Positions 39,886-50,594 of a DNA stretch of 64,000 bases are shown piece by piece. Source of the DNA: Gluconobacter wancherniae NBRC 103581 (GTDB taxonomy: Bacteria > Pseudomonadota > Alphaproteobacteria > Acetobacterales > Acetobacteraceae). The notes under the pieces are model-generated. The model had not been told where the DNA came from, did no database searches, and saw nothing but the letters and a program-made list of their open reading frames with translations. Position 1 is the stretch's first letter. Each line of letters starts with the position of its first letter. Location of the stretch: contig NZ_BJUZ01000001.1 of the NCBI RefSeq assembly GCF_007988885.1, positions 310,001-374,000 on the forward strand, read 5' to 3'. The translations under genes were made by a program, and so were the position numbers.

Positions 39886-40393
39886 GTGAGGCGTTGAAAT
39901 TCATTGCTTGGTTGAATGTTTTCGACTGAGATACCCAGACGACTATGTCGTGGCCATGCTCGGGCCTTTCACGCTCCGCGAATGACGGCGGGGGAGAATC
40001 TGCATGCGGAATTTCTCTCCTGCCAGTGCCACAACCGTGACGCTGGGCAGGTGCGCAAGGGACGCATGTTTCAAAACTGTCATATTGGCGCGGTTCAGTG
40101 ATTGTGGCTGAATTCTGCCATATTCATGAAAAAGAGTGTTGCATTTAAGTCGCGCGCGCTGGTTTCGAAGCGGAATCGATTATTCGGAGGCTTTCAGGGC
40201 CTTTCAGAATCCTTGACCACAGCTCAGACAAGTGGGTATGGGCGCTTTGTGGCCGGTGTTCTTCGGAGCGCACAGCAGAGAGGCAGTCCTGTGGGATTCC
40301 ACTGTTGTGAACGAACAGGAAATACGGTCCGGAACCACGCGGCATTTTCCGCATTAAGGTCCCCTTAAAGGACCGTTCTCAGGATTGAGACAC
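39886..40393 (+). other. 508-base non-coding region before pal
   Basis: No convincing gene is visible: the open frames here are short and lack ribosome sites. Two adjacent inverted repeats lie around 39994-40051 (GAGAA...TTCTC, then CCTGCCAG...CTGGGCAGG), which could fold as an RNA. A possible promoter is TTGACC at about 40213 with TATGGG 18 bases later. An exact TTAA-N7-TTAA lies at 40354-40368. The pal leader is therefore likely long or has several starts. Confidence 0.4.
40354..40368. promoter_or_regulatory. Exact CtrA-box pattern TTAA-N7-TTAA before pal
   Basis: TTAA, seven bases GGTCCCC, TTAA, ending 25 bases before the pal start codon. The pattern equals the CtrA recognition consensus known in Caulobacter and other alphaproteobacteria, and a CtrA gene is present in this window. 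The flanking GGTCC/GGACC also forms a small hairpin, so an mRNA-structure reading is possible. Confidence 0.5.
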
Positions 40394-47464: not shown

Positions 47465-48205
47465 TTAGGCTACAACTTCAGTTGCAGCTTCTTCTTTGAG
47501 GCGAGTGGCTGGTACTGGGGCATCTGTCCGGGAGTTTTCATCGCGCATGATGTAGCCACGGCCCCAGACTGTCGCGATCAGGTCACTTGCACCCACTGCC
47601 TGAAGTTTGCGGCGAAGCTTGCAGATAAAGACGTCAATGATCTTCATCTCTGGCTCGTCGATGCCACCATAAAGATGATTGAGGAATGCGTCCTTCGTCA
47701 GGACAGCGCCCTTACGAAGGACCAGAAGCTCAAGGATTGCGTATTCCTTGCCGGTCAGGTGCAGGGGCTTGCCATGGACTGTGACGTTTTTGCCGTTCAG
47801 ATCCAGTTCAAGCGCACCCACCTGGAGGCGAGGCTCAGAGAAACCGCGTGAACGACGCATCAGAGCCTGAGAGCGGGCAATCAATTCTCCGCTGTCGTAT
47901 GGCTTGGTCATATAGTCATCTGCACCAGCCGAGAACGCGCTGATCTTTGCCTGTGGGCGAACGAGCCCGGACAGAACAAGGATTGGTGTGGAGATGCGTG
48001 CGAGGCGTGCACGACGAATGACTTCGTAGCCTTCGATGTCATTCAGAATTAATTCCAGAATGACAAGGTCATAATCATAGTGACGAAGCATTTCGACCGC
48101 TTCTTCACCCGATGCCGTGTGGTCCACGGTAAAGGATGCTGTGCGCAGCGTCTGAGTGAGGCTGGCTGCGGAATTCAGATCGCTTTCAACGAGAAGGATA
48201 CGCAC
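47465..48205 (-). CDS. ctrA: CtrA-type response regulator with Glu at the phosphorylation site
   Basis: OmpR-type regulator orthologous to CtrA, the alphaproteobacterial cell-cycle/motility master regulator. From GTG 48205 (GGGAG 7 bases upstream) the numbering aligns one-to-one with Caulobacter CtrA: residue 51 is Glu (codon GAA at 48055-48053), not the phospho-accepting Asp, and residue 8 of the acidic pocket is Ser instead of Asp. The lysine in DDYMTKPY and serine in LVLSG are kept. The DNA-binding domain (LTGKEYAILELLVLRKGAVL, NHLYGGIDEPEMKIIDVFICKL, ETVWGRGY-like ATVWGRGYIMRD) is almost unchanged, so DNA recognition should be standard. The C-terminus is longer and ends in VVA, not the ClpXP-recognised AA. 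It faces fliI. Confidence 0.9.
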   Translation of the reverse strand: MRILLVESDLNSAASLTQTLRTASFTVDHTASGEEAVEMLRHYDYDLVILELILNDIEGYEVIRRARLARISTPILVLSGLVRPQAKISAFSAGADDYMTKPYDSGELIARSQALMRRSRGFSEPRLQVGALELDLNGKNVTVHGKPLHLTGKEYAILELLVLRKGAVLTKDAFLNHLYGGIDEPEMKIIDVFICKLRRKLQAVGASDLIATVWGRGYIMRDENSRTDAPVPATRLKEEAATEVVA

Positions 48206-48274
48206 TTTACAACTCCCGGCTTGGTGAACCAATAGTTACTACCTAAGGTTGTTGGTGTCGATATATATAAACCG

Positions 48275-48293
48275 AAAATCGTAAAAAAATCGT
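48275..48293. repeat. Direct repeat AAAATCGT, 11-base period, upstream of ctrA
   Basis: AAAATCGT occurs at 48275-48282 and 48286-48293, one helical turn apart, next to an ATATATATAA element, in the ctrA-fliI intergenic region. Same-face spacing suits a dimeric regulator or polymerase contact; it may simply be AT-rich promoter sequence. Confidence 0.35.
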
Positions 48294-48317: not shown

Positions 48318-48333
48318 TTAGGTTTTTATTAAC
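48318..48333. promoter_or_regulatory. CtrA-box-like site upstream of fliI
   Basis: TTAG, seven bases, TTAAC, differing from TTAA-N7-TTAAC in one position. It lies 68 bases before the fliI start and about 113 bases from the ctrA start, in the shared regulatory region. Flagellar genes are classic CtrA targets in alphaproteobacteria, and ctrA is the adjacent gene. Confidence 0.5.
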
Positions 48334-48400: not shown

Positions 48401-49741
48401 ATGGGGAGCACGATCTATGATGAGTTCCTCCGGGTTGTATCCTCGGTTGCGGTTGATGGGGCCATTGGCAGCGTTCAGGATGTTAACGGTCTCTGTATGA
48501 CCGTTTGTGGCCTTGATGGGCTCCTGTCGATCGGTGATAGAATCGCTGTTGCAACGCGTTCTGGAAAATTTATACAATCAGAGGTTGTTGGTTTCGAAGG
48601 CGGCCGCGCGAGGGTGATGGCCTTCGGTCCGCTGGATGGTATCGGTCCCGGGTGTGAGGCAAGAATTCGTCTTTCATCCCGCGGAACTGGTATTCCCGTA
48701 AATGAACACTGGCTTGGGCGCGTGGTCGACCCGCTCGGCAACCCTATAGATGAGAAGGGCCCTCTTTCGCGCTCAACTCATCTTCAGCCGTTGCGTGTTG
48801 CCCCTCCGAATGCGGCCTCCAGATCCAGATTGGGGCCGCGTCTTGATCTGGGCGTTCGAGCACTCGATGCATTCACAACCTGTCGGAAAGGACAGCGGTT
48901 GGGGCTGTTTGCAGGGTCTGGCGTGGGAAAATCGACCCTATTGTCCATGCTGGCCAAGGGAGCTGGCTGTGACGTGGCAGTCATTGCTCTCGTCGGGGAG
49001 CGTGGTCGTGAAGTCCGTGAATTCATCGAAGACGACCTCGGCCCCGAGGGTATGGCACGGAGTGTCGTTGTGATCGCGACATCTGATGCGCCGCCGCTGA
49101 TGCGTCGTGAGGCAGCCGTTTCTGCGATGAGTATTGCCGAGTATTTTCGTGATCAAGGGAAGTCGGTTCTGTTGCTCATGGACAGTGTCACACGATACTG
49201 CATGGCGTTGCGTGAGATTGGCCTTTCAGCCGGTGAGCCCCCAGCAACGCGTGGCTACCCGCCATCAGTGTTTGCAGAGCTGCCCCGCCTTCTGGAGCGC
49301 GCTGGACCGGGTGCGGCTGATCAGGGGATGATTACGGCACTTTTCACTGTTCTGGTGGAGGGTGATGATCATAACGAGCCGGTTGCAGACGCAGTGCGTG
49401 GTATTCTGGACGGCCATATCGTTCTGGATCGGCGTATCGGAGAGCAGGGGCGGTATCCGGCAATTGATGTCCTGAGATCGCTTTCGCGTGCCGTTCCGGG
49501 ATGTAACAGTACAAATGAAAATGCTCTGACACGCCGCGCACGAGCGGTCATGGCAACGTATGAGCGCATGGCGGACATGATCCGGCTGGGTGCTTACAAG
49601 AATGGCACGGAGCGCGATGTGGATGAGGCAATTCGCCTTATGCCCGCACTTGAGCGCTTCCTCGCGCAGGAACGCGATGAGCGTTCGACGTGTGCACAGG
49701 CGTTCAGCCAACTTTCCGATATCATGAAAATGGCTCTCTGA
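48401..49741 (+). CDS. fliI: Flagellar export ATPase FliI
   Basis: Cytoplasmic ATPase (F1-beta-like) energising flagellar type III export. The 446-residue protein has Walker A LFAGSGVGKST (to about residue 179), ALVGERGREVREFIEDDLG, LLMDSVTRYCMALREIGLSAGEPPATRGYPPSVF and DGHIVLDRRIGEQGRYPAIDVLRSLSR, which are FliI signatures. Normal length. It is followed 20 bases later by fliJ, and preceded by a CtrA-box-like site. Confidence 0.97.
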   Translation: MGSTIYDEFLRVVSSVAVDGAIGSVQDVNGLCMTVCGLDGLLSIGDRIAVATRSGKFIQSEVVGFEGGRARVMAFGPLDGIGPGCEARIRLSSRGTGIPVNEHWLGRVVDPLGNPIDEKGPLSRSTHLQPLRVAPPNAASRSRLGPRLDLGVRALDAFTTCRKGQRLGLFAGSGVGKSTLLSMLAKGAGCDVAVIALVGERGREVREFIEDDLGPEGMARSVVVIATSDAPPLMRREAAVSAMSIAEYFRDQGKSVLLLMDSVTRYCMALREIGLSAGEPPATRGYPPSVFAELPRLLERAGPGAADQGMITALFTVLVEGDDHNEPVADAVRGILDGHIVLDRRIGEQGRYPAIDVLRSLSRAVPGCNSTNENALTRRARAVMATYERMADMIRLGAYKNGTERDVDEAIRLMPALERFLAQERDERSTCAQAFSQLSDIMKMAL

Positions 49742-49761: not shown

Positions 49762-50187
49762 ATGAGAGCAACACCTCTCGATACGCTGCTTACTTTGCGC
49801 AAGCATGAACTTCAGGCAGTCGAGCGCACATTCAGCGAAGCATTAAGCCAGGAGGCTGACGCAGCGGCCGAGGTTGCCCGGGCAGAACGCCATCTGATTG
49901 AAGAGCAGAAAATGGCGTCTGATCCACTGGCGGATGATGGTGCGGTTGAAGCCTTCAGTCGCTGGCTTCCTGTTGGTCGCGCCGCCATCAATTCAGCGCG
50001 CCACAATGAAAAGAATGCCGGGCTGGCACGAGAGATTGCGAAATCCGCTCTTATGATGGCCCGGGCCGCCGTTGAGACAGTCGAGACATTGCAAAAAAAA
50101 CGCAGGGCGGAGGAGGATGCCGCAGCCCTGCGACGTGAACAGAATGTGCTGGACGAGGTGGGTGCCCGTCAGAGTGGTGGCAATTGA
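49762..50187 (+). CDS. fliJ: Flagellar export chaperone FliJ-like
   Basis: Protein of 141 residues predicted to be almost entirely helical coiled coil (PLDTLLTLRKHELQAVERTF ... ETLQKKRRAEEDAAALRREQ), matching FliJ in size and type; FliJ sequence similarity is always low, so the name rests on position behind fliI and helical character. Its last 19 bases overlap the convergent unknown gene on the other strand. Confidence 0.8.
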   Translation: MRATPLDTLLTLRKHELQAVERTFSEALSQEADAAAEVARAERHLIEEQKMASDPLADDGAVEAFSRWLPVGRAAINSARHNEKNAGLAREIAKSALMMARAAVETVETLQKKRRAEEDAAALRREQNVLDEVGARQSGGN

Positions 50188-50594
50188 TCGCCCTGCCGTA
50201 AGATCTGGGAAAGCTGGGCCGCTGTTCCTATTAACGCGCAGGCGACGGGGTGCTCGGTATCGCGGACAAAGGCGAGAACGAGTGTTGGGTCGCTTGCGAA
50301 CAGATCACTTTCAAGGTTGAAAACAGGGCTGTTACGCCTGTCGGACACGGCAGCTTCCGCCGCATGCGCAAGGATGCGCCCTGCTGCACGTTCTAGTGCA
50401 GGCAGGACGATTTCATGAGGCTTTTCGCTGTCTTTGGCATACAGCGACACCAGTTCTTCCCATCCATCGCGCGTCACGAACGCAGGGACGCCGTCTGATG
50501 GTGTCTTGCGTTCTGCACGCAGGATTGTACCCGACTGAGCTAAGCCCACGACATCGATAACAGGCAGGGTGTTTGGGTCAAGTGAAACAGACAT
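50169..50594 (-). CDS. Unknown cytosolic protein
   Basis: Not recognised. The 141-residue protein has no signal peptide or membrane span and reads as a mixed alpha/beta domain (SVSLDPNTLPVIDVVGLAQSG; DGWEELVSLYAKD; SDPTLVLAFVRDTEHPVACALIGTAAQLSQILRQ). It overlaps fliJ tail-to-tail by 19 bases and is followed on the minus strand, in diverging distance of 15 bases, by a secreted protein. A flagellar role is possible from position only. Confidence 0.65.
   Translation of the reverse strand: MSVSLDPNTLPVIDVVGLAQSGTILRAERKTPSDGVPAFVTRDGWEELVSLYAKDSEKPHEIVLPALERAAGRILAHAAEAAVSDRRNSPVFNLESDLFASDPTLVLAFVRDTEHPVACALIGTAAQLSQILRQGDQLPPL

What the first reader, a model, noticed from the sequence alone, without database searches (positions are those of the whole stretch)
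47465..48205. CtrA homologue that is a natural D51E phosphomimetic
Aligned without gaps from its GTG start, residue 51 is Glu where Caulobacter CtrA has the phospho-accepting Asp (codon GAA at 48055-48053), and residue 8 of the acidic pocket is Ser instead of Asp. The DNA-binding half is nearly identical to CtrA. In Caulobacter the engineered D51E form is constitutively active without its phosphorelay. The lineage may thus have cut CtrA free from the CckA-ChpT input and control it by synthesis or proteolysis instead.
Basis: partly seen in the sequence, partly recalled or inferred. Interest (0 to 1): 0.85.

Follow-up and report, generated by a model that had tools for sequence, protein, structure and literature searches.

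The report
Phosphorelay-free CtrA in acetic acid bacteria
In acetic acid bacteria the master regulator CtrA has lost the site where its switch phosphate is attached, and the proteins that used to add that phosphate appear to be missing too, so a regulator known for being switched on and off may now work permanently in the "on" shape.

Summary
The window gene is the only CtrA orthologue found in its genome; residue 51 is Glu, residue 8 Ser. Of 44 readable loci titled as acetic acid bacteria, 41 have E51 and three A51; eight other Acetobacteraceae-like loci of the same search have D51. No ChpT, RcdA or clear CckA orthologue was found here. Of 116 Acetobacteraceae genomes read, all 24 with ChpT have a canonical receiver; 86 of 92 without it do not. 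The main E51 clade lost the phosphotransfer half of the site (D51, acid pair, P55) but keeps S/T79, Y98 and K/R101 in 64 of 64 rows, and its DNA-binding half stays constrained. This fits a locked-on pseudo-receiver. Against a strict mimic, E51 became Ala or Asp inside the clade and other ChpT-less lineages have Arg or His. The known proteolysis route is not supported: RcdA is absent and the Ala-Ala tail is mostly gone, though the window protein ends VVA. Activity and its control are untested, and few independent losses underlie the association.

The parts
47465..48205 (-). ctrA orthologue, 246 aa, receiver + OmpR/PhoB-type DNA-binding domain
   Evidence: Pfam Response_reg 72.3 bits and Trans_reg_C 74.5 bits; best NCBIfam model CtrA NF045991 326.7 bits, below its cut-off of 350; single copy
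47849..48205 (-). receiver domain, residues 1-119, predicted intact (beta-alpha)5 fold
   Evidence: AlphaFold2 model, pLDDT 84-96 per 10-residue block over residues 1-120; closest folds are receivers incl. CtrA 4qpj_C
47540..47827 (-). DNA-binding domain, residues 127-222
48053..48055 (-). codon 51 GAA = Glu instead of the phospho-accepting Asp
   Evidence: alignments
48182..48184 (-). codon 8 AGC = Ser instead of the acid-pair Asp
47969..47971 (-). Ser79, retained activation residue
47912..47914 (-). Tyr98, retained aromatic switch residue
47903..47905 (-). Lys101, retained
48318..48332 (-). CtrA-box-like element TTAA-N7-CTAA, 127 nt upstream of the start, in the ctrA-fliI divergent intergenic region
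   Evidence: within one mismatch of TTAA-N7-TTAA at -127 to -129 in 18 of 18 Gluconobacter-type loci, exact in 4; not at that place in the Neokomagataea loci L026-L028; alignment of 14
48401..49741 (+). fliI, flagellar export ATPase, divergent neighbour
   Evidence: TIGR03498 634.9 bits, over cut-off; its homologue is adjacent to ctrA in D51 loci L249, L250 and (cut off) L043
49762..50187 (+). fliJ
   Evidence: Pfam FliJ 46.6 bits, over cut-off; NCBIfam FliJ 43 bits, under its cut-off of 50.45

Best explanation
It is the orthologue of CtrA turned into a pseudo-receiver regulator. Shown: phosphotransfer residues lost, the relay proteins ChpT and CckA not found, DNA-binding domain under constraint. 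Inferred: Glu51 sits where phospho-Asp would be, contacts Ser79 and Lys101, holds Tyr98 in the active position and so keeps the receiver in its dimerising, DNA-binding form without phosphate; CtrA output is then set by how much protein is made (perhaps with self-binding at the conserved box between ctrA and fliI) rather than by a kinase. Inferred order: the relay was lost and D51E fixed early in the acetic acid bacteria, then Asp8, Pro55 and the Ala-Ala tail decayed.
For: E51 in 41 of 44 readable acetic-acid-bacteria loci. No ChpT: with model A1 true ChpT scores 70-280 bits, E51 genomes at most 40.5 and other ChpT-less genomes at most 42.9, in kinases (PF10090). No clear CckA orthologue: with A2, nine D51 controls 358-1037 bits, best E51 genome 329 (G148; 323 in the main clade), window genome 298; in the tree 13 CckA rows form one clade (100/100) and the five hits taken from four E51 genomes lie outside it. 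ChpT+ genomes 24 of 24 canonical; ChpT- genomes 6 of 92. Split decay in 64 E51 rows: acid pair intact 6, P55 12, R14 3 (canonical rows 37 by definition, 37 and 34 of 37), but S/T79, Y98 and K/R101 64 each. Columns conserved at 95% or more: receiver 47 in canonical, 31 in E51; DNA-binding 51 and 48. All six E51 rows with intact D8D9 keep a VAA tail, which fits stepwise decay. Glu as a partial phosphomimetic in other regulators: PMC12632262, sections 7 and 18 read.
Against: E51 was replaced by Ala (L057, L071, L072; G066) and by Asp without an acid pair (G060/G184, G046/G126) inside the clade, so the charge or its length is not always needed. ChpT changes at least six times on the tree but only one independent pair lies on well supported branches, so the association is strong in counts and weak in independent events. 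D51 without ChpT occurs in 22 genomes read, 6 of them fully canonical. In the kinase tree the window's own hybrid L146 is sister to the CckA clade, with weak support (66/48). PMC2877005 reported cckA present but chpT missing in that group by best reciprocal hits (passage). No activity, DNA-binding or oligomer data.
Confidence: 0.68

Rival explanations
1. Plain decay: after the relay was lost the receiver drifts under relaxed selection, Glu is just the commonest tolerated substitute, and activity comes from the DNA-binding domain or from constitutive dimerisation.
For: E to A and E to D changes inside the clade; R, H, N, G, S at 51 in other ChpT-less lineages; receiver diverges faster relative to the DNA-binding half at larger distances (mean receiver distance 0.380 against 0.246 at DNA-binding distance 0.15-0.25).
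Against: S/T79, Y98 and K/R101 are kept in 64 of 64 rows of the main E51 clade (66 of 73 of all E51 rows with Y or F allowed at 98), while 2 of 20 rows with residues other than Asp or Glu keep them; Glu persists over the deep splits of the clade; at small distances the receiver is not faster (0.174 against 0.203).
Confidence: 0.22
2. CtrA is still phosphorylated, at another residue or by another kinase or small phospho-donor.
For: Other hybrid kinases exist in the genome (L146, L151), and PMC2877005 suggested replacement of ChpT by other phosphotransferases in groups without it (passage). D9 and K101 remain here.
Against: Both the acceptor Asp and Asp8 of the metal-binding pair are gone in the window protein and conserved R14 has changed; no kinase gene lies beside ctrA (and names).
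Confidence: 0.05
3. The receiver has been re-used as a site for a protein partner or small ligand that switches CtrA.
For: The receiver is not lost: 31 of 119 columns stay at 95% or more in the E51 set and the fold is predicted intact; the review PMC12632262 treats partner-bound and directly regulated pseudo-receivers (outline and two sections read).
Against: No partner or ligand was found or looked for beyond neighbours; a permanent dimer interface would also conserve the receiver.
Confidence: 0.12

Closest known systems
CtrA of Caulobacter and other alphaproteobacteria (CckA-ChpT-CtrA phosphorelay)
   Same: Orthologous by descent: same two domains, best CtrA model, divergent fliI neighbour as in D51 relatives, conserved DNA-binding half
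   Different: No phospho-acceptor Asp, acid pair broken, no ChpT, no clear CckA orthologue, no RcdA, Ala-Ala tail mostly lost in the clade
Engineered CtrA D51E of Caulobacter
   Same: The same substitution; used as a phosphomimetic allele in PMC12186491 (passages read)
   Different: Natural, lineage-wide, in a background without the relay, with further decay at D8, R14 and P55
Atypical OmpR/PhoB regulators with pseudo-receivers (ChxR, HP1043 and others)
   Same: Receiver without phosphotransfer residues in front of an OmpR-type DNA-binding domain (abstract starts in the listing; PMC12632262 sections)
   Different: Here the clade can be set against canonical, ChpT-bearing relatives in the same family; neither pseudo-receiver paper names CtrA (0 occurrences in PMC12632262 and PMC4395418)

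Membership tests
CtrA orthologue | Receiver plus Trans_reg_C domain in one protein | tested here: met
CtrA orthologue | NCBIfam CtrA model over its curated cut-off | tested here: inconclusive
   best of 85 families but 326.7 bits against a cut-off of 350
CtrA orthologue | Shared genome position with canonical CtrA of the same family | tested here: met
   ctrA divergent from fliI in the window and in D51 loci L249 and L250 (fliI named)
CckA-ChpT-CtrA phosphorelay | Phospho-accepting Asp51 with acid pair | tested here: not met
   E51, S8
CckA-ChpT-CtrA phosphorelay | ChpT in the genome | tested here: not met
   no match to PF10090; with A1 only kinase background, best 25.9 bits
CckA-ChpT-CtrA phosphorelay | CckA orthologue in the genome | tested here: not met
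   297.8 bits against 358-1037 in controls; both own hybrids outside the CckA clade, L146 as a weakly supported sister; NCBIfam CckA models far under their cut-off
Pseudo-receiver / atypical response regulator | Receiver fold lacking key phosphotransfer residues | tested here: met
   predicted fold; residues
Pseudo-receiver / atypical response regulator | Activity without phosphorylation | not testable with these tools
   needs DNA-binding and in vivo assays
ClpXP-RcdA-CpdR proteolysis of CtrA | RcdA present | tested here: not met
   no match to PF07323 in the genome; Caulobacter vibrioides rings among the controls
ClpXP-RcdA-CpdR proteolysis of CtrA | CpdR present | tested here: inconclusive
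   23 receiver matches listed; the stand-alone ones judged by eye only

The most novel reading that the evidence does not exclude
A whole branch of the Acetobacteraceae runs a locked-on CtrA: a permanent ion pair between positions 51 and 101 stands in for the phosphate. In most rows it is E51 with K/R101, and it was rebuilt with reversed charges as R51 with D101 (six rows of one clade) and H51 with D101 (two rows of another). Phosphorelay loss, receiver locking and loss of the degradation tail together turned a cell-cycle oscillator into a level-set regulator.
Probability: 0.3. Interest if true: 0.85.

Novelty: new variant of a known kind. Interest (0 to 1): 0.68.

Why it matters
CtrA is the textbook case of a phosphorelay-driven, degraded and rebuilt cell-cycle regulator. 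Missing chpT, and often cckA, in Rhodospirillales had been reported (PMC2877005, PMC8116508, passages read) and left open, with a replacement phosphotransferase or undetected genes suggested. The receiver residues point to another answer for this family: where ChpT is gone, CtrA has mostly given up being phosphorylated. The family also offers natural intermediates (E51 with D8 intact, E51 with S8, A51) for testing how a response regulator becomes independent of its kinase, in cultivable acetic acid bacteria.

Tried and rejected
A second canonical CtrA: none found in the genome. CckA-like hybrids L146 and L151 as hidden CckA: they score at the level of paralogues (G047 carries a 323.9-bit paralogue beside a 504-bit CckA) and lie outside the CckA clade, L146 as its weakly supported sister. 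ChpT missed by Pfam: real in some D51 genomes (G164, G109, G270, G284, G294 found only with A1), so I re-tested with A1 all 132 of 299 genomes with no or weak (E over 1e-4) PF10090 match, plus nine controls, before counting.

CtrA box upstream of pal (40354-40368, exact TTAA-N7-TTAA): not conserved in the six relatives in which pal was found, taken as chance. 'CtrA kept only for flagella': rejected, since nine E51 genomes have no FlhA match (G008, G070, G073, G101, G135, G189, G222, G226, G254). I first took Bombella as flagella-less from the ctrA locus; one search shows FlhA whole in five of seven genomes of that group, split in one and absent in one, so I dropped it. Independent-pair test: too few events to decide. 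G003 and G291 score 358-361 for CckA, barely over the background of 337, and gave no row in the tree. The first kinase tree lost its CckA rows to a too strict pattern and was replaced. Rows left out before counts: partial CtrA loci L066, L068-L070, L194, L205, L216, L217 from the tree, and duplicates (153 of 176 rows kept); six long-branch rows from the second tree; nine E51 rows outside the main clade from the 64-row set (L186, L195, L210-L214, L225, L226); L193 and outgroup rows from the 37 canonical rows. G244 counted as ChpT-negative although it has a 40.6-bit fragment. Of the 80 loci, 47 were counted as acetic acid bacteria by title, 8 as other Acetobacteraceae-like, and 25 (other groups or paralogues) were not counted. 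L154, L296, L300-L305, L315 and L316 were fetched and gave nothing used. Paper searches; among the titles and abstract starts listed I saw none reporting E51 or a pseudo-receiver in CtrA, but listings were capped and subscription papers are not held.

Full report
What is there. The minus strand of the window from 48205 to 47465 encodes a 246-residue response regulator with a receiver and an OmpR-type DNA-binding domain. It is CtrA: best NCBIfam model CtrA at 326.7 bits, although under the cut-off of 350, and divergent from fliI as in D51 relatives L249 and L250. The genome (2.78 Mb, 99.88% complete) shows no second copy; the next regulator is 37% identical. Residue 51 is Glu (GAA, 48055-48053), residue 8 Ser (AGC, 48184-48182), while Ser79, Tyr98 and Lys101 are kept. 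The nearest named relatives are Gluconobacter species at 76-83% identity.

How widespread. Of 47 loci titled as acetic acid bacteria (some are MAGs) found by similarity, 44 can be read at residue 51: 41 Glu, 3 Ala, 0 Asp. They span Gluconobacter, Neokomagataea, Tanticharoenia, Acetobacter, Brytella, Acidomonas, Swaminathania, Asaia, Saccharibacter and Bombella; the Ala cases are Bombella and Parasaccharibacter. Eight other loci of the same search, MAGs mostly titled Acetobacteraceae or Rhodospirillales, have D51 with an intact acid pair. Among the 120 best proteins of a large database 43 have Glu, 75 Asp and 2 Asn. Both sets were gathered by similarity to the query and are biased towards it.

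The relay. ChpT: PF10090 matched 185 of 299 family genomes, none of the seven of the window's genus. Because Pfam is not fully sensitive I built a family-specific model from six sequences (A1) and searched 80 and then 61 genomes. True ChpT scores 70 to 280 bits; two of the nine controls (G003, G291) are in the model by construction. E51 genomes show at most 40.5 bits, in kinase-length frames. CckA: a model of seven sequences (A2) scores 358-1037 bits in the nine D51 controls (G197 and G045 by construction; G003 and G291 only just over background) and at most 329 in E51 genomes, 298 in this one (at most 16 candidates per genome were scored). A careful tree puts 13 CckA rows in one clade (100/100) and leaves five hits from four E51 genomes outside; the window's L146 is its sister with weak support, 66/48. 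An earlier survey by best reciprocal hits reported cckA present without chpT in this part of the tree (PMC2877005), which my result does not bear out here. RcdA is absent in this genome. I saw no DivK or CpdR among its 23 receiver matches, by eye only. GcrA, CcrM, SciP and DivL were not searched for.

Association. In 116 genomes with residue 51 read, all 24 ChpT-positive ones have D8, D9 or E9, D51 and K101. Of 92 ChpT-negative ones six do (G013, G039, G087, G163, G227, G244), and only G013 and G227 of these are in genomes at least 90% complete. Residue 51 without ChpT: 51 Glu, 22 Asp, 9 Arg, 4 Ala, 3 His, 1 Asn, 1 Gly, 1 Ser. These counts are not independent: on the CtrA tree ChpT needs at least six changes and residue 51 fourteen, and the independent-pair test has one pair on well supported branches, too few to decide.

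What was lost and what was kept. Among 64 E51 rows of the main clade the acid pair is intact in 6, Pro55 in 12, Arg14 in 3 (canonical rows: 37 by definition, 37 and 34 of 37). S/T79, Y98 and K/R101 are kept in 64 each. Over all 73 E51 rows, 66 keep the three (Y or F at 98); of 20 rows with residues other than Asp or Glu two do. So the part of the site that accepts and transfers phosphate decayed and the part that senses it stayed. Receiver columns conserved at 95% fell from 47 to 31; DNA-binding columns went from 51 to 48. The receiver is still predicted as an intact fold (pLDDT 84-96), closest to other receivers including CtrA from a complex with a phosphotransferase (4qpj_C). The C-terminal Ala-Ala is present in 28 of 37 canonical and 8 of 64 E51 rows; with the looser [AVLI]A the counts are 35 and 15, and the window protein, ending VVA, is in the looser class. 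The six E51 rows that still have D8 and D9 all end in VAA. In the ctrA-fliI intergenic region an element within one mismatch of TTAA-N7-TTAA lies at -127 to -129 in 18 of 18 Gluconobacter-type loci while its spacer changes; other genera do not show it at that place.

Mechanism and doubt. I read this as a phosphorelay-free CtrA with a locked-on receiver. The uncoupling is well supported; the mimic step is inference. Against it: Glu is lost to Ala or Asp inside the clade, and ChpT-less relatives have Arg51 with Asp101 or His51 with Asp101, which fits either decay or an ion pair rebuilt with reversed charges. CtrA is not kept only for motility: nine E51 genomes have no FlhA match.

Known or new. 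Brilli 2010 (PMC2877005) and a 2021 study (PMC8116508) reported missing chpT and, in the second, cckA in many Rhodospirillales (passages read). Pseudo-receivers and Glu at the acceptor position are a known kind (PMC12632262, sections 7 and 18; PMC4395418, passages); neither mentions CtrA. The searches listed in Tried and rejected showed no report of E51 CtrA. I therefore call it a new variant of a known kind.

Noticed in passing
L199-L204 (R51/D101), L190-L191 (H51/D101): Charge reversal between positions 51 and 101 of CtrA in two other ChpT-less lineages, as if an ion pair had been kept with its charges swapped.
   Followed up: partly
G029, G077, G100, G116, G117, G144, G157, G200, G210: Nine of the twelve genomes without a CtrA match were tested for FlhA; eight lack it, G210 has it.
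   Followed up: partly
L210-L214: CtrA-like proteins at about 40-43% identity with E51 but Ile101, in genomes without an FlhA match; perhaps a separate route to a pseudo-receiver.
   Followed up: no
L225, L226: E51 with His8 in genus g81, which groups with the D51 clade in the tree: a likely independent D51E event.
   Followed up: no
   Followed up: no
L151 827-4638: Two overlapping kinase genes in the window's genome, REC-HK and REC-HK-REC, the second CckA-like in its kinase part.
   Followed up: partly
48206-48290: The leader just upstream of ctrA (ATTTTACG...TATCGACA...ACAACCTTGGGTAGTAAC) is almost invariant in 14 Gluconobacter-type loci, more than the CtrA-like box itself; no function assigned.
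   Followed up: no
50169-50594: Small conserved gene beside fliJ, still next to ctrA in Bombella L053 where fliI and fliJ are gone from the locus; no Pfam or NCBIfam match.
   Followed up: no
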